NCBI GenBank assembly: GCA_038501625.1
Contig: JAZAYU010000204.1
Location: 62,001 to 126,000 of the forward strand
Reading direction: 5' to 3'
From: Corbicula japonica
Lineage: Eukaryota; Mollusca; Bivalvia; Venerida; Cyrenidae
DNA length: 64,000 nt
Of this stretch, positions 7,079-60,500 are shown one piece after another (the first letter of the stretch is position 1; every line of letters starts with the position of its first letter). The position numbers and the translations under genes are program-made. Below the pieces are notes generated by a model. That model did not search any database and was not told the DNA's origin. It saw nothing but the letters and a program-made list of their open reading frames with translations.

Positions 7079-9049
7079 AGCAAATTACAACTCTTAAAGT
7101 AAAAATCTGCCACATTACATTATCTAGGCTACACACAAGTTTTACATATAAAACAATCACTTTTTATGGAATATCAAAAGCACTTTAAGTCATGGAACTA
7201 TCTTAACAGCAAAAGACGAGACTATATGTAACCATTGCAAAGGCACTAGTAACAAAAGCCAAAAATCAACAAACTAGATAAACAAAGTAGAGTAAGTCAG
7301 AGTCTTGCAAAAGCATAGAATACATGTCAGGGGCAGATCCAGAGGGGGCACAGTGGGGTTACTCAAACCCCCTTTTTTGGGCAGCATTTTTTAATTTCTG
7401 GAAATCTTGTACTAAACCTTGCAGGTACCAATGCAGTCTGAAATATGGAATATCATCAACAAGGAATATTTTCTGTCCAGGTCAATATCAGTTATTATTT
7501 TACTAATATCACATTTCCAACATGATAAGGTCAACCAGTTACTGCTTCTAAACTTAACCCTTCACCCCAAAGTTATACGCCTTTCCAATAAACAGTTTCG
7601 CAGTCCTGTACGAGTTACTTCCCGTGACCAGATATCAACCCAAAACGAGGCTTCACAGGAAAGCTGAACTATCGGACTATGGCTTAAGCACATATGGCCT
7701 AATATAATCCTTTAAATTTCAGGTGTGTAATCGTCGCCGCCGGTCGAAAATAAGTTACTGGTCTGTTATTCTAGTCAGACATTTTTATTTTCACTATTTG
7801 TTAGACATTTGCATTTTTAATATTGTAAAAACATGTACCTTTCTTGTTGATAGTGGGCAGTATGAAACGCGATTCGGATAAACGTTAGTATTAATGTTAC
7901 GAATTTCTATACAGCATTTTCATCTTTATGTATTTTATACTTAAAATTATATTTAACTGGTATGAAATTCGCAAATTGCTAAGACTAATAATGTACTATA
8001 CTCCGGAAATCGTGACATGTCAACATTCGGTTACTGTATCTGTACGTTATACTTGGACTCATCTATTACTTGAATTCATCGTACCGTTAATGTTCAACGA
8101 AAAATAATTTTGAATTTTTGAAAACGTCACGTATACTTCACAAGCAAAAATATGATACGATTGATTTTGTCTTGAAATTAAGAAGGATCAATAAGGTTAT
8201 CTGATTGTTCGTATCATTCATAAAATAAAATTCAAGGATTCTGATGCTGGCTTCTAATAAAGATGGAGGTGCCGGCTTCAAATAATGATGGAAACATTTA
8301 TATTAACATTAAGACTGCTAAGGTTTGAAATTCTGTCATTTTGGCGTAAACACTCAATCGCTTGATTGAATATTTATGAAATGTTCTGCTAAGATGAGTT
8401 TCTAATTGATGTCTTATGGTTCTACTTGTCGTATTAAGGATTAATAATTCATATAACTGCTATATCAAATACTTTTGCTACCCGATTCAGTAATTAAGGA
8501 TTTCGATATACTTATTAATTGGGAGGTGGAGATACATAAAAAAGTAAACCGATCTCTATTGGTCAGTGATTTCTTCTTCTTAGTAATTGACAGGGGACCC
8601 CATGTGCGCGACAATTTGGCATTTTTATGACATGCCGCTTTCAAAATCAATCGCAGCCGGCATGTCAGTAGTTGATAAGACACGCTAAGCCGGAAACGAC
8701 ACTCAATTTATCCGTGGATAGAACACAGGCTGTTAGTTTAAGTCGTTTAAAGTAAACCTTGGCGCGAGGAATAATGACTTTACACTTTTAGTCAAATTAG
8801 ATTTGTTGTTTTATGAACTATTCTTGATAAAAAAAATTTAATTACGCTGATGTATTATTTCTAATTCAACGATAAACGAGAAAATATATTTTAAAAAAGA
8901 AATTTCATGATGAAAAACGAAAGTTGTAGGTACATGTTCCCTATTACATTAATACAGCGAGCAATAATTTTTCCTGTATAGTAGTCACGTGACTGAATAG
9001 GGGAGGTAACCGAAAAATTCACCGAATTATTGGAAATGCGAATACTTTT
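7079..9049. other. No gene recognised
   Basis: Mostly unique AT-rich sequence. A CAGGGGCAGATCCAGAGGGG stretch at 7328 resembles one end of a widespread DNA element whose relative lies at 20570-20715. CAMSAP 3' UTR may extend into this region. Confidence 0.4.
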
Positions 9050-9241
9050 ACTGTGTGAGTGAACAGTGTAGATCCAGATCAGCTGGCACATCTGTGCCAT
9101 CTGATCAGGATCTACACAGTTCAAAGATCCATTAGGTTATTTCTGACCAAAAAGCCACCAGTGCAGATCCACAAGAGATGGCATGGATGGCACCGGTAGC
9201 AACGTGTTAAAACACTTATATATATGGAGTAAAGGGTCAAT
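9050..9241. mobile_element. Family P MITE fragment downstream of CAMSAP
   Basis: The left hairpin (GAACAGTGTAGATCCAGATC and on) is well kept, the right one eroded. It lies about 430 bp after the CAMSAP stop and may be part of the 3' UTR. Confidence 0.65.
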
Positions 9242-9425
9242 ATGTTGAACATTCTACCAGAATCTCGCCAGTCAATATTATCATTCCTGACGGAGAATTC
9301 TACATTCAGAGAAACATCTTTCACCTATACAAAGTAACATGGCATTGACTGGTTTATGTTTTCATTTTGGAGTTTTCACCGTTTTGACTGTGCTTTAAAA
9401 AGAAACAGCTTTTGGTGGAACAGAT

Positions 9426-9545
9426 CTTGGACTGGTTCACCTGGTCTTTTTGAAGGAGCTTGACTGACTAAGCCTCAAAACATTGCTTGGACTGGTTCAC
9501 CTGGTCTTTTTGAAGGAGCTTGACTGTCTAAGCCTCAAAACGAAC
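9426..9545. repeat. 60-bp tandem duplication just after the CAMSAP stop
   Basis: CTTGGACTGGTTCACCTGGT and the following 40 bp are repeated once with a single early difference. It lies in the likely CAMSAP 3' UTR. Confidence 0.88.
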
Positions 9546-9669
9546 AGCTATCAACGGCACAAACATCGCTATGGCAGTTTTTATGTTCTCTTCCCTGTAC
9601 GTTTCTAGACTGAGACTTGAGTAGAAGCAGCTTTCAGCAACACCAACTGGACTGGTTTACTATGAATGT

Positions 9670-9775
9670 TTATTTCTTTTTCCAGACTGTGTTTTGGAGA
9701 GAGACAGCATCTATTGAAACAGATATATGCTTGGTCGAGGCAACTTCTGAAAATGACTTGGCACCCGAGTTATAT
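9670..9775 (-). CDS. CAMSAP: CAMSAP coding exon 16, end of CKK domain and stop
   Basis: After the acceptor GTATTTTTCAG, the first base completes a Lys codon with exon 15. The frame then reads YNSGAKSFSEVASTKHISVS and IDAVSLQNTVWKKK, ending in TAA at 9672-9670. This matches YSSDRKQFNLIPAKTMSVSV DALTIHNHLW of CAMSAP1. Plus-strand frames here (FFFQTVFWRE...) are shadows. The 3' UTR continues left; no convincing AATAAA was seen within a few hundred bases, so its end is not placed. Confidence 0.94.
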
Positions 9776-12700
9776 CTGAAAAATACCAAAATCATATGAA
9801 TATTCTACGTCAACAACTTTTTCATTAATAAAATTAAAGGTGAAATACAAAAGTTTACCAGTCACATGCAGGTGGGCAGGTTCTAATTTCAGTCATAGTT
9901 AAAAACCAGAGTCAGATTCTACTAACAGCAGATATCTTATCTTCAGCCAAACATCAAAACTTCGTACCAACCAAACTTTCAGAAAATCATTTTTGGTAAC
10001 CTGGGAAATAACTAGCATGAAATCTATCAAAATCTTGCACCTTTATGCTATGGGAAAAGGTTCAAAATAATCATGTGCTGACATATTAGTATCATGCATA
10101 AGTGTGAGGTGAAGATGGAAAAATCTGTCACCGAGGATTAACTGTTTTGCTAGAACGAGGCTCTGCCGAGTGACAGATTTTTATATCTTTACCGAATGTC
10201 TCATGCAAGATACTTTTTCTTGCATACCTTTTACTGTTCATAACATTTGTGTGTATGTATACAAACTAATTTATGCTGAAATATTTACATTAACGCAAAC
10301 CTTTTTTTATGATTACGTCACTAACATGAATAATAATTATATTACGTCAGATACTCCAGGACGTGACGTCACTCACGTGACTCATTCTACATGGGGGGTG
10401 TAGGATTGAAATTTCCTACACGGGTGAAAACACCGGATGACCTAATCTGGTATGCAAGAATATCATATTCTCATTGGTGGATATTTTGTAAGTTCAAAAC
10501 CTAATATTTAACATTACAAGGTTTATGAGGCCAATGGTATTCCGCATTACGAAACTATCATTATCTGTTCTAAAACTTACTTAAAATATTTTTCCACCAT
10601 CTCATTATGTATGGATCTTGGTCCGACACCGACAATCTTCCAGCAGTCATCTGTGTCTGGATCAAACCCGTATAACCCGCGATACCCACAACTCGTGTCT
10701 CGGAACAGTATGATGAAATGTTTGGCATTTGACTTGGCTATTTCCTGGAAAAGGAATGTTAGCATTGAGATATCTAAAAGGTTGACCCTTAACCCTTTAC
10801 TACATATATACACATGTGCAACCAGTGTAGATCCAGATCAGCCAGCACATTTGTGATGTCAGATCCAGATCTACACTGGAAGCATCGTGATTATTTCTTT
10901 TTCCAGACTGTGTTTTGGAGAGAGACAGCATCTATTGAAACAGATATATGCTTGGTCGAGGCAACTTCTGAAAATGACTTGGCACCCGAGTTATATCTGA
11001 AAAATACCAAAATCATATGAATATTCTACGTCAAGCAAACAGCCTAGATTTAGGCGACACAATAAAAATTGCCATAAACAATTATAATCCAAATACAACT
11101 GATTCATTTCAACTGTTGGAAACATGATAAATATCCAGTACATACCTCAAGAACTTTATTTTTCTGCTCGGTGTTAACTGAACCGGCCAGACAACAGTGG
11201 CTGATCGCATTTATCATAATGTGACGGTTGGACTTGGCACTTGGTTTCACAAATAACTTTGGACCTAAAACAAAAATTATTACATTCTGATAGTAATTTA
11301 TTTGTATTTATCATGGATCACGATGGCATCATTGTTAAAACAGCTTCTAGGTCAGAAAATCAATACTGGAGACTTGTCTCATATCTTATGCTTGCAACTG
11401 GTCAGTTCTGAGATTGTGTTTAATTTCAACCAATCAGATTTCTGTGATCTGAGACTGGTCTTCAATTTTAATCTTGAGCCCAGTAATGACCTGTACACAG
11501 TCATGTACTTGATTAAATTTGCACTTACTTTTTTTCTACCTTCCAATGTCAATTGGTGCAAACATACCTAGGATTAGTATATTATAGTGTTTTCATTTTC
11601 ATGAACACCAACAGTTTTACTTCCTTATTCCTCCACTGCAGGTATTGTCTGATTTTTTTTCACTAAGGTGCGCCACTGAGCTCTCTTGATGAACAATATG
11701 GGGGACTCCAATTTCTGGGATGCTAACAAGTCATTTGTATCAATTGCAATTGTTTAAGTTTTAAACTCTTTTACATGGCATAACTGACAAAAACCTTAAT
11801 TTGCATGTGAATTTGCAAAAAACTACATTAATCATAATGCCATGTTTTTACCTACCTATGTCTGAAATTTGTTGGATCATATCAAAATCCTGCCTATTAG
11901 TTACCTTAGCAATCTGTATGCAATTGAAACTCTTAAGAATATAAGTATCTTGCATGGGTGTGAGGTGAATACAGAAAAATCTGTCGCCAAGGGGGAACTG
12001 TTTTTGCGGAAACATGGCTCTGTCAAGTTCCTGCCAAAACAGTTCACCCTCGGTGACAGATTTTTCTATCTTTACCGAATTCCTCAAGCAAGATACTTTT
12101 TCTTGCATACCTTTTACTTTGTTTACACTTTAGTATATGTATATAAACTTAATTTTGTTTTCTTACGCTGAAATATTGATGTTTAACGCAAACCTTATTT
12201 TTTGTAAATGACATCACGCTGAAATACTTATCCGGTATGCAAGAAAGAGTACAACTAATACATTTAGTTGTATGACTAAAATAAGCATCCCAGATATTAC
12301 TTGAGTTTTGGAGTACCTCTGAGACTACACAAATCAACAATCATTTATAAGTACACTTCAACTCCGTTATATCGCGATCAGTTATATCGCGAAATCCAAT
12401 ATATCGCGCTTGGTCCGTGGATCCCAATTTTTTGTACATTTACATTGTATGTGTTTGTTCATTTTTCAGGGGTGGTAAAAAAAGATCAAATTATTTAATC
12501 AACGTTGGCGACAATTTCACAAAATGCACGCTTTTTCCGTGTCTTATTACGTCATTTTCGGCGAAGGCTGTTTATTACATTTTGTATGCAGGGATTTAAG
12601 AGGCGATGTACACATTCACCAGCAGATACAATTTAACCTCAAACGAATGAAAATAGAGGAGAGGTTTTTTTTTACAATTCTGTTGCTTCTGATTTGACAT

Positions 12701-18700: not shown

Positions 18701-21700
18701 GTACTGAACATTTCAGTTATTTTGTCCATGGAAACACAGTCATATACTAAAATATGAAAACATATAACTTTAAATCCTGAGCTGTTCACCTTAAAACAAA
18801 ATGTTTTTTATACCAATAAAGACAAAGCACACTGCTTCAAGTGTTTTAAGACGTTCTGACCTAGATCTTAGACCACTGGCCTAGGTAGAGCTAGGTTCTA
18901 TACATGCTGGGCCTAACTTCTTGACTAATTGTGCAACGTTAACCTAGATGCTAAACCAACTGACCTTTCTTCAAGACCTATTGGTCTAGGTTACGAAGTT
19001 ATTAACTAGGCTTTTTGACCTAAAATCCAATGTTCTAGACTTACTGACCTAGACTCAAGACCTGTTGGCCAAGGTTCTAGACCTATTGACCTAGGTTTTG
19101 GACCTGTTGACCTTGGTCCTAGACTTGCTGTTCTAGGTCATAGACCTGCTGACCTAGGTTCTAGACCTGCTGACCTAAGTTCTAGACCTACTGACCTAGA
19201 TTCTCTAGATTCCCTTAGACCTGCTGACCTAGGTTTGAGACTTACTGACCTGGGTTCTAGACCTACTGTCCTAGGTTCCAGACCTGCTGACCTAAGTTTG
19301 CAGACCTGCTGACCTAGGCTCTAGACCTACTGACCCAGATTCTCTAGACCTGCTAGGTTTGAGACTTACTGACCTAGGTTCTAGACCTGCCGACCTAGGT
19401 TCTAGACCTGCTGACCTAGGTTCTAGACCTGCTGACCTTCTAGACCTTGACCTAGATTCTATAGACCTGCTGACCTAGGTTTGAGACTTACTGACCTAGG
19501 TTCTAGACCTTCTGTCCTAGGTTCTAGACCTGCTGACTTAGGTTCTAGACCTACTGACCTAGGTTCTCAACCTATAGATCTATGTTCTTGACCTGTTGAC
19601 CTAGGTTCTAGACCTACTGTCCTAGGTTGACCTATTGACCAAATATGTTGATCTGATTACCTAGGTTCTAGACCTACTGACCTGTATTCTCTAGACCTGC
19701 TGACCTAGGCTTCAGACCTGCTGACCTAAGTTCTAGACCTACTGACCTAGGTTCTAGACCTACTGACCTAGGTTCTATGCCTGCTGACCTAGGTTCTAGA
19801 CCTACTGACCTAGGTTCTAGGCCTGCTGACCTAGGTTCTAGACCTACTGACCTAGGTTCTAGACCTGCTGACCTAGGATGGGCTGACCTTAGTTCAAAAT
19901 TTACTAACTTCTGTTCATAACTGACCTCACTGATTAACAAATATGGCTAAGTTTTCATTTCATACTGTCTTTTGACAAAGGTCCAGAAAACTTAGTTTTT
20001 AAAATGTTCTGTAGGCCCTCAAGTTTACTCAACTATTTTCATACTTATCTTCTTCTGGGACAGATCAGATATCACTATCTACTAAGTTTTATTATCTGAT
20101 ACAATTAATACTTAGGTACCTAAAGTTTGTACTGATAGAGTGTTTAATGACAGGTGGTTACTGAAGAATTAACAAACCTGACAAAACTGCTAACAAACTT
20201 TATGCTCAGATGAGCTCAAATTAGCTAACACCCAACTAAATAATGCTGACAATCTAATAAATTTATTTGATAAAATGAACATGTTCTTCTTTTTTTATGA
20301 TAGCTTTTTATAAAACCTAACTTAATACTGTGTTTTATCGTTTTTATTTTCCTTTAATTTCATTATTTACTGAAAACCAAGACATCGCCGTTTATGCATA
20401 AAGTGACATGCTATTAGAGCAACTTGATATTTAAAACATTAATTACCTAGAATCTTTAATGCACTCTTAATGCAGAAAATTCAACATGCAGCAGGCTCAG
20501 GCAAATAAAGTATCTCTAAAAATAAACTTGACTGAAAATCAGATCCTCAAAACTGAAAACCCTACAGGACTATCAGGGTCGGATGCAAGATTTCCCAGAA
20601 AGGGGGTTCATCTGGGGCAGTGCTGGGTAGTTTCTGGCCAACATGCCCATCAGATTAAATACTGCAACCCCAAAACATGAGCAACCCCAGTGAACCCCCT
20701 CTGGATCCACCCCTGGCTATACATGTATCAAGAGCATAACATAATAACGTACTAATAATTACAGAAATGAAAGGATAAAATTACATTGAAAATGAGGGCT
20801 TTCATTCAGCTTAGAAACCTACTAGTCATTGGTGTGGGCTTACTCCTGGGTAAAGTGTAAAAATCTGAAAACATTGAAGGTATAAGCCAAGTATTGGCAA
20901 CAATAAGCTCAAAAACATGAACTAGGAAATAAATATGACATTAACTGAATAATAAATACATGTATAACAATACTTAACCTGCAAATAAAAGTAAAGCTTC
21001 TAGGAGACAGATTTTGATCAGTTAGGAAAAAGACAATAAATCTTTATTACACTTGATGTGGGAGAACTTGCAACAAGCATAGACCCTCCCAATTTTAGAC
21101 TGCACAATATTTATTTATGTTTAAACCTTTAACTGTTAAGAAATTATTATATTACATCAGTGACCAGTGTAGATCCAGATCTGCCTGTGCATTCTTCCAG
21201 AATGATCAGGATCTACTGAGTTTCCTGATTTAAGTAAGAGGCTAAATCCTTAGACCTTGTGCATCTCCATCCCACAAAAAACACACTAGTGAATAAAAAA
21301 ATATTATTTTTTCATGTTACAATCTCCAGCATGATACTTAATTTGCTTACGATAATAACATTGGGTACCATTCTTGAAACTAGCTTGTGATTGGTCAATT
21401 TAGATACTCAGTCCAATTTAACCAATAAGCAGCTTCCGACTGAAGACCAGTATCTGGTCTCAGTTTTATTATCAAGAATCCTTACTGAACAGTTTCTGGG
21501 AGAATTATCAAAGTGATCACTTAAGTCCTTAGGCCAAATAAAAAAATAGTTCAGGAAACGCTGTCAGAAAAATGTAGGAGGGTAGGTAGGGATTTTTTTT
21601 TATTTTATTTTTTGATTTTTTTTATAAATATAGAGCTATATATGAGCGACTCTTTCGGCATAAAGAGCTTGTTTTAGAAATGTATTAGCAGTACATTCAT

Positions 21701-51700: not shown

Positions 51701-53679
51701 AAGCATTAATTTGGAGAGTCCAGAGTCAACTGTAGTAACAGCTTTACTGTAGAAATTGATACTTCGTAATGAATGGAGAATCAGTTTGCACCACACAACC
51801 AATCAACTGCAGAGATAACTCAACAGATGCAGATACTTGCATGTTGATGAAAACAAATTTGAATTTTTCAACTTTTGACCCCACCTGATTCTGAGGTTTG
51901 GGTCATTTTGATGCAGAAGAATTTAGGAATAAACAAGAATAAAGATAAATATTGTATCTTTAGCATTTTAAATATGAAGTTAATTCTTACTTGACACTTG
52001 AAAATAAATTAAAATGAAGTTAAACTAATTGTTTAAGTAGTAAATTTCAATTCATAAAAGATATGACTCACCAAGATTTGATTATGACCCCTTTGAAAAC
52101 TTATCAATAGGGGTCAGATGACCTCTGGTTTTCAAAAACTACTGAAAATGCTTGAGCAAGGTAAGTAAAACTTGTAAAAAATACCCAAAATAAATTAAAA
52201 TGAAGTTAAACTAATTGTTTAAGTAGTAAATTTCAATTCATAAAAGATATGACTCACCAAGATTTGATTATGACCCCTTTGAAAACTTATCAATAGGGGT
52301 CAGATGACCTCTGGTTTTCAAAAACTACTGAAAATGCTTGAGCAAGGTAAGTAAAACTTGTAAAAAATACCCATAGATCTGCCATGTTAACATATATATA
52401 CAGTGCTTACTTTATGGCATGCTGCCGGGAATTCTTTTTCAAAATTGTTTCTCAAATTCTTTTTAGTAATCTAGCCCCACCACCCAAAACAGTTCCTGTC
52501 CTTTGCTTAAATATGGTAAATACATTTTTTAATGGTAATTTTAAAAAAGAATTCAACAAAATGTGTTGTTAACCTTTTAATTCATAAATAAATGTTTTTA
52601 TGCTTGTGTGACCAGTATTGATCTAGATTAGCATCTGTGCATTTTGATCAGGATCTGTACTGGTGGCATCTTTGTTATAAATAACCTAATGAATCACTAT
52701 AACTCCGAGAGTCCAATGTGTCGCTGGGCAAAATTTTTGTTAGAGGACATAAATAATGTTAATTAGTTTTTTGTTGTACATTTATTAGCAATGTATAAGC
52801 ACAAAATTCACATATATAATAACCTTTTAATTGTCTCATTGCAAAAACATCCACCACAAGTTATGCCCTTGGCAAGAAATGCACTAAAAATCAAAGGGGA
52901 ATAATTCAAAAACGGAACAAGGTAGAGTTATGGTTTGTGTGCACTGCACTTTGAGTCATTGCCAGAAACATGCACACCAAGTTTGAAGTCATTTGGACAT
53001 ACAGTGACAAAGTTAGGCTCTGGACAAAGAAATCCGGATAACAAAGTAATCCCTAGTCAGGCGACATAAAACGGTTAACAGTGTAGATCCTGATCAGATG
53101 GCATGTTTGTCCTGGCTGATCTGGATCTACACTGTTTACCCATCTGAAAAAGGCATATATATATAGAGAGAGAGAGAGAGAGTAAAGGGTTAATTATGTC
53201 AATTTATACTTCTGGCCAGTTAGTATTCTCTTAACAAGAGTTGTTAATGACCCTGATTACTAACAACTCTCAAGAGTGGAAATCTACTAAGGAATGGATG
53301 GAAGCAGGCTTAATTTGTTCTTTGTTTTGATAAGAGCAGTTGAAGGTGGTAGCATTTGAGCTTCTCTCTTTATGGTTTGCAGTGTCTTATTATTTAATAA
53401 ACTTTTGCTTGTTTTCCTCTCTGCTTTCTGAGTGCATAGTGAGGCCAGGCATTCTGATTGTGGCTATTTCTTGATGTGTATGCAATGTTTCATTTTTTTA
53501 TAACAATGCAAACAATGAATGATTATTTGGCTTCAATGGCATGCTATAATTAGTGGCCAATTTTATTAAATGAGTGCCAAAGATAACTGTCTTACCCTAT
53601 GAATATCATATTCATCCATGGGGGTGATTTCAATTACGTCCCCCTCGGTATCTTCCATATTTTCACCTTGATTTGCCAT
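9670..53679 (-). CDS. CAMSAP: CAMSAP/Patronin, microtubule minus-end binding protein (complete, 16 coding exons)
   Basis: CAMSAP proteins bind and stabilise microtubule minus ends in the cytoplasm. The coding sequence joins, on the minus strand, 53679-53596, 47093-46998, 44916-44811, 41897-41788, 39943-39707, 39328-39193, 37190-36945, 35790-35557, 32704-32602, 30382-26935, 26039-25912, 25008-24734, 13902-13738, 11264-11146, 10744-10581 and 9775-9670. That is 5757 bp, about 1918 residues, longer than human CAMSAP1 (about 1600). All phases agree and all introns are GT-AG except intron 8 (GC-AG). The order is: CAMSAP N-terminal region and CH domain (about 29-325), the EPLMPARLKPSKEK motif near 590, the CC1 coiled coil with LGKAAFLHVV near 900-945, a P/Q-rich linker near 1295-1450, a charged coiled coil near 1600-1680, and the CKK domain near 1790-1918. 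Family identity comes from recognised conserved motifs. Exon borders are read directly from the sequence but are not transcript-tested. Confidence 0.95.
10090..10464. mobile_element. Hairpin element with AAAAATCTGTC core, copy 1
   Basis: The core GGAAAAATCTGTCACCGAGG folds back on CGAGTGACAGATTTTTATAT. It is followed by CATGCAAGATACTTTTTCTT and an AT-rich tail ending TATGCAAGAATAT. The tail holds TGACGTCA (10364-10371) and CACGTG (10374-10379). In CAMSAP intron 15. Confidence 0.6.
10581..10744 (-). CDS. CAMSAP: CAMSAP coding exon 15, CKK domain core
   Basis: Encodes 54 residues with NAKHFIILFRDTSCGYRGLY, FDPDTDDCWKIVGVGP and NEMVEKYF, matching ANHYIILFRDAGCQFRALY...PDTEEIYKLTGTGPKNI of the microtubule-binding CKK fold. 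The acceptor is CTTTTCCAG. The exon ends in AA before GTAAGT, so it needs a phase-2 partner, which the terminal exon at 9775 provides. Confidence 0.96.
10789..10885. mobile_element. Family P MITE left half, next to the extra CAMSAP terminal exon
   Basis: Begins TTAACCCTTTACTAC and carries one hairpin (ACCAGTGTAGATCCAGATCA...GATCTACACTGGAAGC), then is replaced by the exon copy. A 15-bp match to the start of the MITE right half (GCAAACAGCCTAGAT) resumes at 11035. Confidence 0.7.
10891..11034 (-). pseudogene. CAMSAP: Extra copy of the CAMSAP terminal exon inside intron 14
   Basis: This 144-bp segment is identical, base for base, to 9670-9813. It holds the 38 nt of intron before the acceptor, the acceptor, the full last coding exon (copy 10996-10891) and the TAA, and similarity stops exactly at the TAA. 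It sits between exon 14 and exon 15, so it is out of order for normal splicing. It has an acceptor but no donor. Exon 14 ends in phase 0, so joining it to this copy gives GAG ATA TAA, that is one Ile and then a stop, deleting the core of the CKK domain. It may be a decayed duplicate, a regulatory alternative terminal exon or an assembly artefact. Confidence 0.9.
11146..11264 (-). CDS. CAMSAP: CAMSAP coding exon 14, start of CKK domain
   Basis: Encodes PKLFVKPSAKSNRHIMINAI followed by SHCCLAGSVNTEQKNKVLE, nearly the same as the vertebrate CKK start (SNKPIIHNAISHCCLAGKVN). It ends in phase 0 at GTATGT. In the next intron the first acceptor-bearing sequence met is the extra copy of the terminal exon (10996-10891), before real exon 15. 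Confidence 0.96.
11360..11482. mobile_element. CCAAT foldback (family C), diverged
   Basis: Arms GGAGACTTGTCTCATATC and GATCTGAGACTGGTCTTC around CAACCAATCAGATTTCTG; in CAMSAP intron 13. Confidence 0.6.
11945..12252. mobile_element. Hairpin element with AAAAATCTGTC core, copy 2
   Basis: Same layout as the 10090 copy: GTATCTTGCATGGGTGTGAG, core AAAAATCTGTCGCC / GGTGACAGATTTTTC, inner arms GGGGAACTG(TTTTTG) and CAAAACAGTTCACCC, ending TATGCAAGAAAG. In CAMSAP intron 13. Confidence 0.6.
12354..13297. mobile_element. pogo/Tigger-like element, copy 1 (944 bp)
   Basis: Starts CACTTCAACTCCGTTATATC and ends ATAATGGAGTTGCAATG, with TA on both sides. Repeated ATATCGCG motifs lie near both ends. It is non-autonomous: internal frames are short and conserved with copy 2 only at DNA level. 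In CAMSAP intron 13. Confidence 0.8.
13529..13710. mobile_element. Degenerate family P MITE beside CAMSAP exon 13
   Basis: Hairpin remnants (AATATAGATCCAATCAGATG; TTTAGATCCTGATCAGACTG) end 28 bp from the exon 13 donor. Confidence 0.55.
13738..13902 (-). CDS. CAMSAP: CAMSAP coding exon 13
   Basis: Encodes a linker of 54 full codons, including PPSPDLYRTRKGPGSDAGSA, and ends HSGEYAG. It joins exon 14 as EYAGPKLFVKPS, matching AEYTGPKLFKEPS of the family at the CKK border. The acceptor is TATTTCAG and the donor GTAATA. A degenerate MITE lies 28 bp beyond the donor. Confidence 0.92.
14187..14304. repeat. 118-bp foldback
   Basis: AGGTTAATAAATGGACAAGC at the left pairs with GCTTGCCCATTTATTTACCT at the right; inner arms are CCACTTGTCAATTATGG and CATTATCGACAAGTGGC. 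Confidence 0.75.
14771..14796. repeat. Perfect 26-bp palindrome
   Basis: Each half reads CAGGGCCATTATC and the centre is ATCGAT. It shares GGGCCATTATCGA with the foldback at 14187-14304, so it may be the other end of a decayed element. Confidence 0.8.
14992..15152. repeat. 161-bp foldback
   Basis: TTTCATATGTGATTTGGGAA at the left pairs with TTCCCAGATCACATATGAAA at the right. Inner arms are GGGGATAGCATTTTGAACTG with its complement, and GTTGCCCGAGGC / GGCCGAGGGCAAC around a TTTA loop. Confidence 0.85.
15185..15304. repeat. Direct repeat with GACCGGTC palindrome
   Basis: GGAAACAGTC(A/G)AAACTATTG ACCGGTCAACAGTTCGC occurs twice, about 75 bp apart. Each copy centres on TTGACCGGTCAA. Confidence 0.8.
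15511..15850. mobile_element. Solo half plus complete family P MITE
   Basis: 15511-15605 is a left-half remnant. 15609-15850 is a near-complete reverse copy ending AAAAGGTTAA. Confidence 0.75.
15942..16170. mobile_element. Family P MITE with rearranged left hairpin
   Basis: TTAACCCTTTCC and GGAAAGGGTTAA ends intact. The start of the left hairpin (GAACAGTTTAGATC) is repeated, as if copied twice during replication. Confidence 0.8.
16207..16312. mobile_element. CCAAT foldback (family C), diverged
   Basis: TTAGATTGGCTGAAA and TTTCAGCCAAATAGATGC flank the centre; the right arm ends CAGTTTTATAATCTT. Confidence 0.65.
16624..16758. mobile_element. Half-length family P MITE
   Basis: A single-hairpin version (TTTACTCCATAGATAC to GGAGTAAAGTGTTAAA), which shows that one-hairpin derivatives exist. 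Confidence 0.65.
17281..17540. mobile_element. Family P MITE, diverged
   Basis: Starts TTAACCCTGTCC and ends GGAGTAAAGTGTAAA; both hairpins readable. Confidence 0.7.
17796..17940. mobile_element. CCAAT foldback (family C)
   Basis: GCCCAAGATCTTACAACT start and ATGATCTTGGGGC end; two GTCTCAAATCTCAAGCATCT-type arms with CAGCCAATCAGATTCTTG. Confidence 0.75.
18856..19895. repeat. 21-bp minisatellite in CAMSAP intron 12
   Basis: About 45-50 copies of CTGACCTAGGTTCTAGACCT(G/A), degenerate at the left and cleanest at 19700-19880. Each unit holds two 6-bp palindromes (CCTAGG and TCTAGA). The period is divisible by three, so a heptapeptide frame (LEPRSAG/LEPRSVG on the minus strand, 19940-19674) stays open by chance. 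It is not considered coding. Confidence 0.95.
20570..20715. mobile_element. Fragmentary foldback with GGATCCA-type ends
   Basis: Left CAGGGTCGGATGCAAGATTT and right CCCCCTCTGGATCCACCCCT are imperfect inverted ends of an element type common in invertebrates. Confidence 0.4.
21127..21250. mobile_element. Family P MITE fragment
   Basis: One hairpin (GACCAGTGTAGATCCAGATC) with eroded ends. Confidence 0.5.
21359..21482. mobile_element. CCAAT foldback, variant subfamily
   Basis: TGTGATTGGTCAATTTAG and TTTAACCAATAAGCAGCTT in opposite arms, ending CAGTTTTATTATCAAG. The same subfamily occurs at 26050-26390. Confidence 0.6.
21483..22303. other. No gene recognised (CAMSAP intron 12)
   Basis: Unique AT-rich sequence with a homopolymer-rich patch at 21590-21625; no open frame of note. 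Confidence 0.5.
22304..23257. mobile_element. pogo/Tigger-like element, copy 2 (954 bp)
   Basis: Full-length relative of copy 1 in the same orientation. It starts CACTGCAGCTCCGTTATATC and ends ATAATGATGTTGCAGTG, with TA flanks. The 85- and 90-residue frames inside are broken in copy 1 and resemble no transposase I know. In CAMSAP intron 12. Confidence 0.8.
23717..23916. repeat. 31-bp tandem repeat
   Basis: About six near-identical copies of CACAGTAACATGTACAACTA GGAGCTGCGCT, in CAMSAP intron 12 immediately before a CCAAT-type foldback element. Confidence 0.93.
23948..24081. mobile_element. CCAAT foldback (family C), clean copy
   Basis: CAAGGTTATAAAGCTGAG to CTCAGTTTTATAACTTTGGG, with long complementary arms (CCAGTCTCAAATCTCAAGTA and CTTGAGATTTGAGACTGG). 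Confidence 0.8.
24348..24604. mobile_element. Family P MITE, diverged, beside CAMSAP exon 12
   Basis: Starts TTAACCATTTTGTCC and ends in TTAA; about 130 bp from exon 12. Confidence 0.65.
24734..25008 (-). CDS. CAMSAP: CAMSAP coding exon 12
   Basis: Continues the charged helix (ERRKSEEKMRREQIFKQYLE), then a basic Pro-Lys stretch ending KPKPRPKSMF. This matches LGKPKSKPKKPRPKSVH of CAMSAP1, after which a Ser-rich linker leads towards the CKK domain. The exon ends with one base at GTAAGT. The following intron 12 is about 10.8 kb and repeat-filled. Confidence 0.92.
25912..26039 (-). CDS. CAMSAP: CAMSAP coding exon 11, charged coiled coil
   Basis: Encodes 42 codons of almost pure Glu/Lys/Arg/Gln sequence (TAEEEMQKKKEKLERMRQKR and on). 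This is equivalent to the RKAEEARVRKQQLEAEVELK helix of CAMSAPs. The acceptor is CTTTCAG and the exon ends in two bases of an Arg codon before GTAAC. Confidence 0.9.
26050..26390. mobile_element. Two tandem CCAAT foldbacks, variant subfamily
   Basis: GGGCCCAAAATTATAACA starts the first and GGGCCCAAAATCATAACA the second. Both hold GATTGGTCAA/GACTGGTCAA and AACCAATCAGCAGCTTTCTT. The first begins about 10 bp upstream of the exon 11 acceptor, so it supplies its polypyrimidine surroundings. Confidence 0.65.
26576..26706. mobile_element. CCAAT foldback (family C)
   Basis: GATTATAAATTTAGATTAGA to CAAATTTATAATC, with GAGACCAGTCTCAAATT and AGAGACTGGTCTCAAATTTA arms. Confidence 0.7.
26935..30382 (-). 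CDS. CAMSAP: CAMSAP coding exon 10, very large central exon
   Basis: A single 3448-bp exon encodes about 1150 residues of mostly disordered sequence. Conserved islands in order are GSNLLANVSIDSE (near 465), EPLMPARLKPSKEK with a following acidic EEERGEQ stretch (near 590), the CC1 coiled coil HELIKIKMKLEEKRKAIERK with LGKAAFLHVV (about 900-945), a second short coiled coil LNQSLTDLQGEIMKLSLKQ (near 1200), and a Pro/Gln/Tyr-rich segment (about 1295-1450). A short MTSS repeat lies near residues 985-1010. The donor is CAG|GTATAA, phase 0. The acceptor TTTACTTTCAG completes an Asn codon with exon 9. Confidence 0.95.
30421..31720. mobile_element. Family P MITE split by a mariner-like element
   Basis: The left part (CCCTTTACTATATAAG to AGAAAGAACTTACTA) and right part (ATGAATCTTAAAGCAAACAG to ATAAAGGGTTATA) are continuous in the family consensus at the spacer AACCTAATGAATC. 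The element between them is described separately. The left end is only about 40 bp upstream of the acceptor of CAMSAP exon 10. Confidence 0.75.
30549..31605. mobile_element. Mariner-like non-autonomous element, TA target site
   Basis: Left end GATGATCCAAAAGTTTTGTC and right end (reverse complement) GGTGATCCAATAGTTTTGTC are inverted, with CACTG next to both. TA flanks both sides, as in the Tc1/mariner superfamily. Inside is a direct tandem copy of about 60 bp (GTATAGTTGATGAATGTCAG at 30875 and 30935). No intact transposase frame. Confidence 0.7.
32319..32541. mobile_element. Family P MITE, diverged, beside CAMSAP exon 9
   Basis: TTAACCCATTTATACC to GGAGTTTGGTTAA, 60 bp from the exon 9 donor. 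Confidence 0.7.
32602..32704 (-). CDS. CAMSAP: CAMSAP coding exon 9
   Basis: Encodes 33 full codons, including SLTAQDRNIPYGAPRQSVVA and WPDQ, homologous to the SLTRVDGQPRGAAIAWPEKK block of CAMSAP1. The acceptor is CTTTCAG and the donor AA|GTTAGT. The left end of a 1.25-kb TIR transposon is only 62 bp upstream of the acceptor. Confidence 0.88.
32766..34016. mobile_element. 1.25-kb TIR DNA transposon, non-autonomous
   Basis: Left end CAGACCTGCCGACTTT and right end AAAGTTGGCAGGTCTG are inverted repeats (one mismatch in 16). The direct repeat TTTGAG occurs at 32760-32765 and 34017-34022. Subterminal runs of CGGGA and TCCCGC are typical of a widespread invertebrate DNA-transposon type, probably hAT-like. 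No coding frame is credible. It lies in CAMSAP intron 8. Confidence 0.7.
34325..34676. mobile_element. Fragment plus near-complete family P MITE
   Basis: 34325-34408 is a right-end fragment ending GGAAAGGGTTAA. 34446-34676 is nearly complete (TTAACCCTTTCCTCC to GGAGGAAAAGGTTA). Confidence 0.75.
35042..35282. mobile_element. Family P MITE, complete, 241 bp
   Basis: TTAACCTTTTCCTCC to GGAGGAAAGGGTTAA, one of the cleanest copies, with both hairpins close to consensus. Confidence 0.85.
35338..35432. mobile_element. CCAAT foldback (family C), diverged
   Basis: Central motif TTTCAACCAATCAAATGCTT with flanking GAAAACTAGTCTC and TTCAGTCTGGGC arms. Confidence 0.5.
35557..35790 (-). CDS. CAMSAP: CAMSAP coding exon 8 with a GC donor
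   Basis: Encodes the linker after the CH domain. SVPISNVTKQSF is the conserved PVPISNATKRSF motif, followed by low-conservation Ser/Pro/Gln-rich sequence. No GT donor keeps the frame with exon 9. The site GGAG|GCGAGT at 35556-35555 gives the correct phase (one base, G, joined to AG of exon 9) and fits the GC-AG intron class, in which the exon end is strongly complementary to U1. Confidence 0.85.
35816..36045. repeat. Interspersed repeat shared with 42017-42396
   Basis: Matching blocks are CATATTTACACTTCAA, AAGTCTTATTC, GGTAAACAGTGTGAC and, in opposite orientation between the two loci, GGAAAACAGTTGGGTTGTT. One copy therefore has an internal inversion. Confidence 0.65.
36340..36478. mobile_element. 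Family P MITE remnant abutting the type copy
   Basis: ATGGACGACCAGTATAGATC and AGAAATAACCTAATGAA mark an older copy whose spacer is cut by the 36479 insertion. The remnant 36721-36805 (GATTTACACTGGTCTC to GGAATATAGTGTTAAG) is probably its other half. Confidence 0.6.
36479..36720. mobile_element. piggyBac-like MITE, type copy (family P)
   Basis: The 242-bp element begins TTAACCCTTTCC and ends GGAAAGGGTTAA. A TTAA target site next to CCC termini is the hallmark of piggyBac-superfamily elements. Inside are two hairpins: the left one starts GACCAGTGTAGATCCAG and ends CTGCACTGGTCGCA, the right one starts CAAACAGTTTAGATCCTG and ends GGATCTAAACTGTTC. They are separated by a unique spacer (GGTCACAAATAACCTAATAA). 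The whole is also a palindrome end to end. It has no coding capacity. About 34 copies or fragments occur in both orientations across the window. Confidence 0.85.
36945..37190 (-). CDS. CAMSAP: CAMSAP coding exon 7, CH domain second half
   Basis: Encodes about 82 residues. DVCLKSNVGIADSLYNLRL, FSYEDVLYMHETIKLNVM and AEIFYWFE match the ICLKE...ADSLYNIRLL, LTLEDMLYAP and AELFWWFE stretches that end the CAMSAP CH domain. The exon ends in one base of a split glycine at a GTGAGT donor. Confidence 0.95.
37207..37336. repeat. 56-bp tandem duplication beside CAMSAP exon 7
   Basis: CAACTGCCAGGTATTAAAAT and TTGTGGCTTGATCTTGTAAA occur twice, starting about 20 bp upstream of the exon 7 acceptor. Confidence 0.85.
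37671..38883. mobile_element. 1.2-kb DNA transposon with 23-bp TIRs and 6-bp TSD
   Basis: Ends are inverted repeats of 23 bp (GGCTGTT(TC/AA)AAAAAAATGGCTGG) with direct CTATTG on both sides (37665-37670, 38884-38889). Inside, a 16-bp palindromic motif TGTCAGGAGTGTGACA occurs three times exactly. No intact transposase. The superfamily is not assigned. It lies in CAMSAP intron 6. Confidence 0.75.
39193..39328 (-). CDS. CAMSAP: CAMSAP coding exon 6, CH domain first half
   Basis: Encodes 45 residues with MESLLDDMGDGCSLATLLSF and YCPQILRIE, matching LLEDLMRDGSDGAALLAVIHYYCPEQMKLDD of CAMSAP. It enters in phase 0 and exits with one base. Confidence 0.95.
39707..39943 (-). CDS. CAMSAP: CAMSAP coding exon 5
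   Basis: Encodes 79 residues including KAHLALIDALMTAF and SSELPSDTEDAILFWVNKV. These are the family signature stretches (SAHMAMVDALMMAY and SKELPYDLEDAMVFWINKV in human CAMSAP1) of the N-terminal CH-type fold. Both ends are phase 0. Confidence 0.95.
40181..41140. mobile_element. pogo/Tc1-mariner-like element with TA target site
   Basis: Starts CAGTACGCTTATTTGAATAG and ends GAATGTACTG, flanked by TA on both sides. A further inverted match (TTATTTGAATA / TATTCAAATAA) lies just inside. 960 bp, non-coding. CAMSAP intron 4. Confidence 0.6.
41245..41402. repeat. Imperfect tandem repeat
   Basis: TGCTAGCTGACCTACC and TTCAAGTATGAAGGTAAATG alternate three to four times in CAMSAP intron 4. Confidence 0.85.
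41788..41897 (-). CDS. CAMSAP: CAMSAP coding exon 4
   Basis: Encodes HWSIIQVLSRKGIYAV, equivalent to HQSVIQALSRKGIYVM of the family, followed by a divergent loop and VTETILMQSAPFKL. It completes the glycine codon split with exon 3 and ends in phase 0 at GTAAGT. Confidence 0.93.
41933..43815. mobile_element. Composite: family P MITE carrying two later insertions
   Basis: MITE pieces at 41933-42016, 42397-42463 and 43720-43815 line up in order with the family consensus. The first gap is a 380-bp repeat also present at 35816-36045. The second gap is a hAT-like element (42464-43719). Confidence 0.75.
42464..43719. mobile_element. hAT-like non-autonomous transposon, 1256 bp
   Basis: Ends CAGGGATTCTAAAAT and ATTTTAGAATCCCTG are perfect inverted repeats of 15 bp. 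The flanks (G/T)TAGATCC at 42456-42463 and 43720-43727 form an 8-bp duplication with one mismatch. CAGGG termini with 8-bp target duplications are typical of hAT. Subterminal CCGATTTTC/GTCCGATTG repeats add to the fold. The 112- and 93-residue overlapping frames show no recognisable transposase. Confidence 0.75.
44450..44693. mobile_element. Family P MITE, complete, beside CAMSAP exon 3
   Basis: TTAACCCCTTTCCTC to GGAGGAAAGGGTTAA, both hairpins clear; 118 bp from the exon 3 donor. Confidence 0.85.
44811..44916 (-). CDS. CAMSAP: CAMSAP coding exon 3
   Basis: Encodes about residues 61-95 with the motif LANLLASSEIYCQAC, equivalent to IKLLLSSELYCRVC in human CAMSAP1. It enters in phase 0 after ATTACAG and leaves one base in the split glycine codon at a GTAAG donor. 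Confidence 0.93.
45048..45190. mobile_element. Single-hairpin family P MITE
   Basis: TTAACCCTATTCC start, one hairpin (GACCAGAGTAGATCC...GGATCTACACTCATCC), decayed right end. Confidence 0.65.
45200..46780. other. No gene recognised (CAMSAP intron 2)
   Basis: Apart from the MITE fragment at 45697-45848, unique AT-rich sequence without credible frames. Confidence 0.5.
45697..45848. mobile_element. Family P MITE fragment
   Basis: Two hairpin arms and an AAAGGGTTAA right end; the left end is absent. Confidence 0.6.
46783..47035 (-). repeat. CAMSAP: Tandem duplication of the 3' end of CAMSAP exon 2
   Basis: A roughly 120-bp unit is repeated twice. The right copy holds the last 33-38 nt of exon 2 with its donor. 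The left copy (about 46783-46912) carries a diverged version at 46909-46877 reading NLHDPFYVTAE followed by an intact GTAAGC donor. The left copy has no good acceptor in phase: the nearest AG (46915) would make a 38-nt exon that breaks the frame. It looks like a partial, non-functional exon duplication. Confidence 0.75.
46998..47093 (-). CDS. CAMSAP: CAMSAP coding exon 2
   Basis: Encodes 32 residues beginning AKAKASLSWILCKAYQ and ending DPFYVTAE, matching the conserved CAMSAP stretch AKIAANLQWICAKAYG...DPFYVDQ. The acceptor is TTTGCAG and the donor GTAAGC, with phase 0 at both ends. The last 33 nt, with the donor, are partly duplicated at 46877-46909. Confidence 0.93.
47129..47370. mobile_element. 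Family P MITE, complete, beside CAMSAP exon 2
   Basis: TTAACCCTTTCCTCC to GAGGAAAGGGTTAA, 36 bp upstream of the exon 2 acceptor. It could overlap the branch-point region. Confidence 0.85.
47380..47616. mobile_element. Family P MITE, diverged, back to back with the previous copy
   Basis: CTTTACTCCACAGG to GGAAGAAAGGGTTT; both hairpins degenerate. Confidence 0.65.
48184..48439. mobile_element. Family P MITE, near complete, reverse orientation
   Basis: TTAACCG start and GGAGGAAAGCGTTAA end; hairpins well preserved. Confidence 0.75.
48977..49104. mobile_element. CCAAT foldback (family C)
   Basis: Long arms GGAGACCAGTCTCAATTCTC and TGAGATTTGAGACTGGTC, ending TTTTATGAGCTTGGGC. Confidence 0.75.
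50111..51010. repeat. Internally amplified interspersed repeat, about 170-bp units
   Basis: Starts AAAACTAGACTGTGTCCTCA. About five units each hold GGGCCATAACTCTGGTAAAA, ATCTGTGCAAGTTTGAAAGA and TTGATGCCACAAGATTTAAT. The single-unit form is at 57771-58022. Confidence 0.82.
51617..51643. repeat. (ATC)n microsatellite
   Basis: Nine ATC triplets, AATCATCATCATC and on. Confidence 0.95.
52001..52373. repeat. Perfect 187-bp tandem duplication
   Basis: AAATAAATTAAAATGAAGTT starts at 52001 and again at 52188. The two copies show no difference over about 185 bp, so the event is recent. CAMSAP intron 1. Confidence 0.93.
52569..53193. mobile_element. Family P MITE interrupted by another repeat
   Basis: The left part ends at ATAACCTAATGAATCA (52698) and the right part resumes at about 53065 (AACAGTGTAGATCCTGATCA). 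The 0.37-kb insert carries GGGGAATAATTCAAAAACGG and AAGTTTGAAGTCATTTG, a common molluscan interspersed-repeat type. A short (TA)n(GA)n run precedes the right TTAA. Confidence 0.7.
53596..53679 (-). CDS. CAMSAP: CAMSAP coding exon 1 (start codon)
   Basis: Encodes 28 residues starting MANQGENMEDTEGD and ending PMDEYDIHR, which lines up with the LVPLDRYDAARAK stretch that precedes the CH region in vertebrate CAMSAPs. The exon ends in phase 0 at a GTAAG donor. An in-frame TAA lies 45 nt upstream of this ATG, and the base after the ATG is G, which supports this start. Untranslated upstream exons cannot be excluded. Confidence 0.88.
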
Positions 53680-57593: not shown

Positions 57594-60500
57594 CTACAAA
57601 ATAAAATAAACGTATGAATCAACTGCGACATTTCAATTTTTTATCAGAAATGTTTCATTATCCCCCAACCCCAAATAGAAACATTTTTCGTTTCCTTTAT
57701 CTGAACTACAAGTATCTGTTTGCTTGTTACATGTTTTCACAATATATGCTTGTTCCAGCACATGACAAACAAAACTAGAATGTGTCCTCGGACACTGATG
57801 CCCCCCTGCTGCAACATAATTTTTAAGGGCCATAACTCTGGTAAAAATGGTAGCAGGAAAAATCCTTTCTTTACGATCCTCTACACATCCTGCTTGATAA
57901 TCTGTGCAAGTTTGAAAGAAATCCGCCTTATAGTTTAGGAGGAGTTGATGCCACAAGATTTGGGGACGTACGGACGTACGGACAAGTGTAACTTTATAGC
58001 CTCCCACTTTGTGGGGGCATAAAAATCCAAGGCGGTAACCTCTCAGGTTCTAATTTTGTTAATTGTTTGTGGTGTCTGTTGAAATTGATCATTTTATAAA
58101 CTCTGTTCTCCCTTTCTCTTCTTCTGGGCTGTGCGGGAAAGCTGTGTCTTCTGAATCTGGAAATTCCTAATATGCGTATTTCACTTTCCTAGCAAGAATA
58201 ACTTTATAGTAAGTACAGTGTACTTGTGTTTGTATAATAATATCAAGAGAAAAGAAAAGAAAGTTACTCACATAATTGTAAAAATGAGAAGACAGCTTTC
58301 ATATAAGACGAGGTGTCGCTGGAAAACTTTTCCAGGTTGATTACAAAAACCTGCTCCCTTGGGAATACTCTGAAATACTCCTTTAAGTGTTGATGGTATA
58401 TACCAATACGAAGTCTCACCTGGAATTTAAAAATTCACATTTCATTAACATACTATTAGCCTTTCCTTCACAAACAAACAAATGCAATCCAACTCATGCA
58501 ATATTAACTCTAAGTTATCCTTCTGCAATTCCGGTATTTCTCCATTTTGAAATCGTTTCCAACAAACTTTTTTAAAATAAAATGTTAGATTTAAATTGTG
58601 TGAAACTGCAGAAAATGAAAAGGGAAGAACGCCATCTAGATTTTCTGTAGATGTTTACAAATGAAGTCGGGCATAAACTTAGAAAACACTTAATAATGCT
58701 ACCTTACCAAAAGGTAAAATATGCATATCAGGAATCGAATTTCACCAAATGTCATGTCAACAAATATAAGTGCATCCTCAGTAAAAAAGTCAAATATGCA
58801 AATCAGGAATTGCCACACCAAGAAAACCTGTCTCCCCACACAGCCTAAATGTAGAGAGGAAACGAGCACCGAGAGCACGAGTTTATTAGATAATCAAATT
58901 TTAAATTAAACTCCACGGACTATTAACGTAAAAGAGAACACTGCAAATCAAATCAACTTAAAATTAATACATTGCTTACATTACGTTTAGAATGTGTGAC
59001 CCGATAGATACATAATGAATATCAACTACAGCTTCATAAATCATATTAATGACTTATAGCATCGCTTTTATTAACGTAACAATTCCAGTCTAAGTATGTT
59101 TCAATTAAACTATACAATTACATTATCAGCGCGGTACAAAAACTTGGTGTTGCCTTAAGAATAAGTCTGTCTTCTAGTCACATTATTCTGATCATGTATA
59201 TTGTGCTTGTGAAGGTGGCAGTCAGAAGAAGATGTAGGCGCGGAGACATGGGTTCTTAGTCAGAAGATGTAGGCGCGGAGACATTGGTTCTCAGTCAGAA
59301 GAAGATGTAGGCGCGGAGACATTGGTTCTCAGTTAGAAGATGATGTAGGCGCGGAGACATTGGTTCTCAGTTAGAAGAAGATGTAGGCGCTGTGACATTG
59401 GTTCTCAGTTAGAAGAAGATGTAGGCGCGGAGACATTGGTTCTCAGTAAGAAGAAGATGTAGGCGCGGAGACATTGGTTCTCAGTCCGAAGAAGATGTAG
59501 GCGCGGAGACATTGGTTCTCGGTCAGAAGAAGATTTAGGCGCGGAGACATTGGTTCTCAGTCAGAAGAAGATGTAGGCGCGGAGACATTGGTTCTCGGTC
59601 AGAAGAAGATGTAGGCGCGGAGACATTGGTTCTCAGTCAGAAGAAGATGTAGGCGCGGAGACATTGGTTCTCAGTCAGAAGAAGATGTAGGCGCGGAGAC
59701 ATTGGTTCTCAGTCAGAAGAAGATGTAGGCGCGGAGACATTGGTTCTCAGTCCGAAGAAGATGTAGGCGCGGAGACATTGGTTCTCAGTCCGAAGAAGAT
59801 GTAGGCGCGGAGACATTGGTTCTCAGTCAGAAGAAGATGTAGGCGCGGAGACATTGGTTCTCAGTCAGAAGAAGATGTAGGCGCGGAGACATTGGTTCTC
59901 AGTCAGAAGAAGATGTAGGCCCGGAGACATTGGTTCTCAGTTAGAAGAAGATGTAGGCGCGGAGACATTGGTTCTCAGTTAGAAGATGTAGGCGCGGAGA
60001 CATTAGTTCTCAGTCAGAAGAAGATGTAGTCGCGGAGACATTGGTTCTCAGTCAGAAGATGTAGGCGCGGAGACATTGGTTCTCAGTCAGAAGATGTAGG
60101 CGCGGAGACATGGGTTCTCAGTCAGAAGAAGATGTAGGCGCGGAGACATTGGTTCTCAGTCAGAAGAAGATGTAGGCGCGGAGACATTGGTTCTCAGTCC
60201 GAAGAAGATGAAGGCGCGGAGACATTGGTTCTCAGTTAGAAGATGTAGGCACGGAGACATTGGTTCTAAGTCCGAAGAAGATGTAGGCGCGGATACATGG
60301 GTTCTCACTCAGAAGAAGATGTAGACGCGGAGACATTGGTTCTCGGTCAGAAGAAGATGTAGGCGCGGAGACATTGGTTCTCGGTCAGAAGAAGATGTAG
60401 GCGCGGAGACATTGGTTCTCAGTTAGAAGAAGATGTAGGCGCGGAGACATTGGTTCTCAGTCAGAAGATGTAGGCGCGGAGACATTGGTTCTAAGTCAGA

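What the first reader, a model, noticed from the sequence alone, without database searches (positions are those of the whole stretch)
9670..11034. Terminal CKK exon of CAMSAP duplicated into the preceding intron, identical over 144 bp
Seen: 9670-9813 and 10891-11034 are identical, including splice acceptor, whole last exon and stop. One is in order after exon 15; the other precedes exon 15. Exon 14 ends in phase 0 but this exon expects phase 2, so a 14-to-copy splice reads one Ile then TAA. It would yield a CAMSAP lacking most of CKK, the domain known to recognise microtubule minus ends. The intron-side and exon sequence match equally, which suggests a recent event or gene conversion. It could be a natural switch for a non-minus-end-binding isoform, a neutral accident or an assembly error.
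Basis: partly seen in the sequence, partly recalled or inferred. Interest (0 to 1): 0.78.

Follow-up and report, generated by a model that had tools for sequence, protein, structure and literature searches.

The report
Clam CAMSAP last exon copied intronically
A clam gene for a microtubule-end protein carries a second, identical copy of its last exon inside an earlier intron; it looks like a recent copying accident beside a small transposon rather than a switch, but the copy stops exactly where the gene's own protein also ends unusually early.

Summary
Window 9670-9813 and 10891-11034 are identical (144/144), the only two matches in the 1.07-Gb assembly. The minus-strand gene is a CAMSAP of a bivalve; exons 14-16 encode CKK.

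The switch reading is weak. The copy keeps its acceptor, but up to exon 15 there is no strong donor and no AATAAA/ATTAAA. If used, it should extend exon 15 and read Glu-Ile-stop about 410 nt before the last junction, a predicted decay target. No RNA data were available.

The copy starts where a palindromic MITE in intron 14 is cut short and shows no TIRs, TSD or poly(A). Best reading: a young local copy made by templated repair or fork switching at that element. Three other separated local near-duplications lie in 264 kb. Assembly error is not excluded.

Unexplained: the real exon 16 leaves 3 residues after the last CKK Trp, against 8 or more in 125 of 125 measurable homologues (of 140), and this early stop is the exact end of the block. 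Boldest open reading: the copy overwrote the real exon's end.

The parts
11146..11264 (-). CAMSAP exon 14, first part of CKK, ends in phase 0
   Evidence: boundaries read from AG/GT sites
10745..11145 (-). intron 14 (401 nt) that holds the exon copy and the MITE remnant
10997..11034 (-). copied 38 nt of intron 15 with the acceptor
   Evidence: identical to 9776-9813
10891..10996 (-). copied exon 16 with its stop codon
   Evidence: identical to 9670-9775; GAG ATA TAA if spliced from exon 14
10789..10889 (.). left part of a TTAA-ended palindromic MITE, cut off in its spacer where the copy begins
10581..10744 (-). CAMSAP exon 15, middle of CKK
9776..9813 (-). end of intron 15 within the duplicated block
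9670..9775 (-). CAMSAP exon 16 in its expected place, end of CKK, ..NTVWKKK stop
9669..9674 (-). AATAAA overlapping the real stop; AATAAT in the copy
9046..9244 (.). another element of the same repeat family, downstream of exon 16; approximate limits
   Evidence: families D3-D5; spacer word TTATTTCT at 9137

Best explanation
A 144-bp piece of the gene (38 nt of intron 15 with the acceptor, and all of exon 16 up to the last base of the stop) was copied about 1.2 kb upstream into intron 14, in the same orientation. It sits where a palindromic MITE is cut short. The likely route is templated copying: a break or stalled fork at the palindrome was patched with nearby DNA. Shown: two identical copies, one CAMSAP locus, the MITE cut at the junction, no TIR, TSD or poly(A) on the block. 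Inferred: the break at the MITE, the templated repair, the direction of copying, and youth. The copy is most likely mute or slightly harmful: if its acceptor is used it should give a composite exon with an immediate stop.
For: Identity 144/144 with abrupt ends; 2 matches in the assembly, so it is not a repeat family; single CAMSAP locus. Exon 16 in its expected place continues a CKK conserved from clam to human, so 9670-9775 is the ancestral position (inference). The left flank is a MITE with 2036 first-look candidates, 40 scored; the window remnant is 79-87% identical to 30 copies and stops in the spacer at the junction, so the MITE is older than the copy. Block ends have no terminal inverted repeat, and the flanks show no target-site duplication or poly(A). 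The first 8 bases of the block, TTATTTCT, also occur in MITE spacers; 497 of 63990 window 8-mers occur in a spacer string on either strand, 0.8%. Comparable separated local duplications: 3 others in 264 kb (2 direct, 1 inverted). Size is within that of experimental templated insertions, 73-414 bp (PMC5110952 section 4).
Against: The source is 1.2 kb away, whereas the insertions of PMC5110952 came from distant regions. Resumption of the MITE beyond the copy is not significant: 189 of 200 shuffles, 59 of 200, 76 of 1000 random positions. TTATTTCT lies on the opposite strand of most MITE spacers aligned this way; only L013 of 30 has it in the needed orientation, and in 264 kb only the window's own junction among 67 loose pattern hits has it directly after the motif, although other spacers carry it a few bases further on. 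The model does not explain why the block ends exactly at a stop codon that is itself unusual.
Confidence: 0.62

Rival explanations
1. The intronic copy later rewrote the real exon: a one-ended conversion from intron 14 into exon 16 replaced the native end, removed the C-terminal tail and made the two identical.
For: Exon 16 leaves 3 residues after the last CKK Trp, against 8-18 (one 282) in 125 of 140 homologues that could be measured; the early stop is the exact block end; the last bases AGAAATAA resemble the MITE spacer. One event would explain all three.
Against: A small indel is simpler: with one A fewer the exon would read WKRNKHS-stop, with one more a 25-residue tail. No trace of a normal tail was found nearby. 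No relative's DNA could be compared.
Confidence: 0.13
2. Assembly artefact: the second copy is not in the animal.
For: Perfect identity; single assembly; no reads available.
Against: The two flanks differ and the left one is a plausible MITE; 144 bp inside a 929-kb contig is an odd size for a haplotype or misjoin error (inference); no N in the window.
Confidence: 0.12
3. A working poison exon or alternative end that lowers or alters CAMSAP in some tissues.
For: Intact acceptor, identical to the real one, only 149 nt from the exon 14 donor; Glu-Ile-stop.
Against: No donor above 2.5 bits and no AATAAA/ATTAAA. In mouse all eight marshalin (CAMSAP3) isoforms keep CKK (PMC3828766 passages), so no precedent there.
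Confidence: 0.08
4. Tandem duplication of the 1221-bp stretch from mid-intron 14 to the stop codon, followed by deletion of all but the last 144 bp of the first copy.
For: Spacing 1221; tandem duplications occur nearby, for example a perfect 187-bp pair at 52001-52373.
Against: Needs two events; no other remnant of the first unit was seen.
Confidence: 0.05

Closest known systems
Templated sequence insertions, class 2 (PMC5110952; abstract and sections 4 and 9 read)
   Same: A 144-bp patch copied from elsewhere, no TSD, no poly(A); their experimental insertions were 73-414 bp, median 191.
   Different: Source is 1.2 kb away in the same gene, not distant; polymorphism, break and junction chemistry not shown.
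Local intragenic exon duplications with microhomology or template switching (search listings only)
   Same: Exon duplicated within its own gene.
   Different: Here a single terminal exon with 38 nt of intron, placed out of order in a clam; those listed are mostly larger human disease rearrangements.
Gene-fragment capture by transposons (Pack-type elements; recalled)
   Same: A gene piece sits inside or beside a small DNA element.
   Different: Only two matches genome-wide and no right-hand MITE end shown, so no sign of mobilisation.
CKK C-terminal extension (PMC6868217, passages only)
   Same: The segment that the window's exon 16 mostly lacks; removing CKK termini drastically lowered microtubule affinity of the tested (Naegleria) constructs, and human termini contribute to affinity, not specificity.
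   Different: There removed by construct design; here missing in a genomic reading.

Membership tests
CAMSAP/Patronin | CKK domain | tested here: met
   PF08683, 8.5e-52, model 1-119 of 119
CAMSAP/Patronin | CC1 spectrin-binding region | tested here: met
   PF17095, 3.2e-15, in the 1167-aa open frame
CAMSAP/Patronin | N-terminal CH domain | not tested
   CH-like open frames seen, not scanned
CAMSAP/Patronin | basic C-terminal extension after CKK | tested here: not met
   3 residues after the last Trp against at least 8 in 125 of 140 measurable homologues; not a required feature of the family
Templated sequence insertion, class 2 | copy of sequence present elsewhere, no TSD, no poly(A) | tested here: met
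Templated sequence insertion, class 2 | source in a distant region | tested here: not met
   source 1221 bp away; hence compared with, not filed under, this class
Templated sequence insertion, class 2 | microhomology, microdeletion or added bases at junctions | tested here: inconclusive
MITE (left flank) | short, many copies, inverted terminal repeats, TTAA ends | tested here: met
   30 copies compared, right terminal repeat found in 20 of 30; duplication of TTAA as target site not tested apart
Alternative last exon | own poly(A) signal | tested here: not met
   no AATAAA/ATTAAA in 10996-10745, weak variants only
Alternative last exon | transcripts that use it | not testable with these tools
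   no RNA data

The most novel reading that the evidence does not exclude
An exon copy that a repair accident placed in an intron then served as template and rewrote the end of the working exon, trimming the affinity-giving C-terminal extension of CKK in this clam's only detected CAMSAP: a silent duplicate that changed the main protein rather than an isoform.
Probability: 0.13. Interest if true: 0.6.

Novelty: new member of a known kind. Interest (0 to 1): 0.33.

Why it matters
If real and young, this is a clear case of local exon copying at a palindromic MITE inside a conserved gene, and it may still be segregating. The shortened CKK end matters more: CKK termini contribute to microtubule affinity (PMC6868217, passages), so a natural CAMSAP with almost no C-terminal extension would be a ready test of what that extension does.

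Tried and rejected
MITE capture and spread of the exon piece: rejected, 2 matches genome-wide and no significant MITE resumption beyond the copy.

A third, normal terminal exon: not found by DNA, by protein or by tblastn of the last 75 residues of 35 homologues against the window (strong hits only at exons 15, 16 and the copy). This says nothing about sequence missing from the assembly.

A clean CKK-less isoform: not supported by signals. One search did not score the exon 15 donor, because I gave it a wrong range, and it printed 406 nt for the composite exon for the same reason; 416 nt follows from the donor at 10580. broke off with a script error after its first control; one search replaced the anchored test.

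Same-species transcript fragments: one search returned 20 proteins, best 56% identity over nearly the whole query (up to 91% over short stretches), none near-identical over the query.

Literature: no paper in the held library has both CAMSAP and bivalve. Searches were read as listings only, apart from the three papers named (outline and sections, or passages).

Full report
Observation. The two stretches are identical over 144 bases with abrupt ends. On the minus strand each holds 38 nt of intron with an acceptor and a 106-nt terminal exon; the TAA stop is the last triplet of the block. A search of the 1.07-Gb own assembly with the block gave these two matches only; a search with the CKK residues gave three matches, all at this locus. 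The exon 14-16 product matches the whole Pfam CKK model, and the large upstream open frame has CC1; seven distinct PDB sequences match, mostly named CAMSAP. The nearest proteins are an unnamed entry on a 6548-base contig (94% over the queried 144 residues) and a Ruditapes philippinarum protein (89%); of 642 hits 120 were listed. The animal is thus probably a venerid-like bivalve (inference). An identical 144-mer is not a chance match.

Splicing into the copy. Exon 14 ends in phase 0, the copied exon expects phase 2, and the join reads Glu-Ile-stop. From the copied acceptor to exon 15 (252 nt) the best donor-like site scores 2.5 bits on a generic table recalled from memory, against 8.9 for the exon 14 donor; AATAAA and ATTAAA are absent, weak variants (AGTAAA, AATAGA, AAAAAG) occur once each. 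The AATAAA overlapping the real stop reads AATAAT in the copy. The most likely use is a composite exon 10996-10581 (416 nt) whose stop lies about 410 nt before the 15/16 junction; by the general junction rule this is a decay target (established rule, not tested in this animal). No RNA data were available.

Surroundings. The stretch between copy and exon 15 belongs to a repeat with 2036 first-look candidates, of which 40 were scored. Alignment with 10 of those loci and 3 window elements, then comparison with 30 loci (10 and 20 more of its list), shows a palindromic element with TTAACCC.. and ..GGGTTAA ends; the right end was recognised in 20 of 30 (136 to 248 bases from the cut start). In the window it runs from 10789 to about 10889 and breaks off in the spacer where the copy begins. 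It is 79-87% identical to the 30 copies, so it is older than the copy. Whether it resumes beyond the copy is open and the controls are against a claim: 189 of 200 shuffles reach the local score, 59 of 200 the long-gap score, and 76 of 1000 random positions reach the 13/15 match of the first bases. The block's first 8 bases, TTATTTCT, occur in MITE spacers; 497 of 63990 window 8-mers do so on either strand. In the alignment used here most spacers have the word on the other strand; L013 alone of 30 has it in the needed sense at that point (for the 264 kb). Microhomology is therefore suggestive only.

Background. In 264 kb (window plus the next 200 kb, with one run of 2500 N) there were 46 self-matches of at least 100 bp and 95%, 40 within 5 kb, 18 of those separated. 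By inspection 14 of the 18 rows belong to two tandem arrays; four places remain: this one, a direct 153-bp pair (99.3%, 3.6 kb apart), a direct pair of about 390 bp (97.5%) and an inverted pair of about 430 bp (96%). Whether the other three are transposons was not established. Zero differences in 144 bound the divergence at 2.1% (95%); bivalves often show within-species diversity of that order (recalled), so the insertion may still segregate.

The unexplained point. Among 140 homologues (120 listed, 20) the last CKK Trp could be aligned in 125; 8 to 18 residues follow it, once 282, never fewer than 8. This includes 37 entries among P0001-P0038 (P0034, a nemertean, left out), all but one of them named molluscs. 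The window has KKK and stops, and that stop is the block end. With one A fewer the end would read WKRNKHS-stop, with one more a 25-residue tail, so a small indel may have come first; both copies share it. Then the block end met the stop by coincidence. Or the two are linked, for example by conversion from the intronic copy into the gene. In published work CKK termini contribute to affinity and do not define minus-end specificity (PMC6868217, passages). All eight mouse marshalin isoforms keep CKK (PMC3828766, passages).

Verdict. Young local templated copy at a broken palindromic MITE 0.62; overwrite of the real exon's end 0.13; assembly artefact 0.12; working poison or alternative exon 0.08; tandem duplication with deletion 0.05. 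It works like a class 2 templated insertion (PMC5110952) but its source is local, so it is not filed there; as a local exon duplication it is a new member of a known kind.

Noticed in passing
window 9670-9681 (minus strand): The real exon 16 reads ..NTVWKKK-stop, 3 residues after the last CKK Trp, against 8 or more in 125 measurable homologues of 140.
   Followed up: partly
window 59219-63369: About 110 copies of a 38-bp unit, 93% matches.
   Followed up: no
window 52001-52373: Two abutting copies of about 187 bp, 100% identical.
   Followed up: no
window 19032-19877: Array of a 21-bp unit (GGTTCTAGACCTGCTGACCTA-like), open in several frames.
   Followed up: no
window 9426-9541: A 60-bp unit repeated about twice just downstream of the real exon 16.
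   Followed up: no
L047 9210-9362 and L048 2946-3098: A 153-bp pair, 99.3% identical, 3.6 kb apart; an open frame of 124 codons runs through the first copy and one of 115 through the second.
   Followed up: partly
P0011 (Ylistrum balloti CAMSAP): 282 residues after the last CKK Trp, made of a short repeat; possibly a gene-model error.
   Followed up: no
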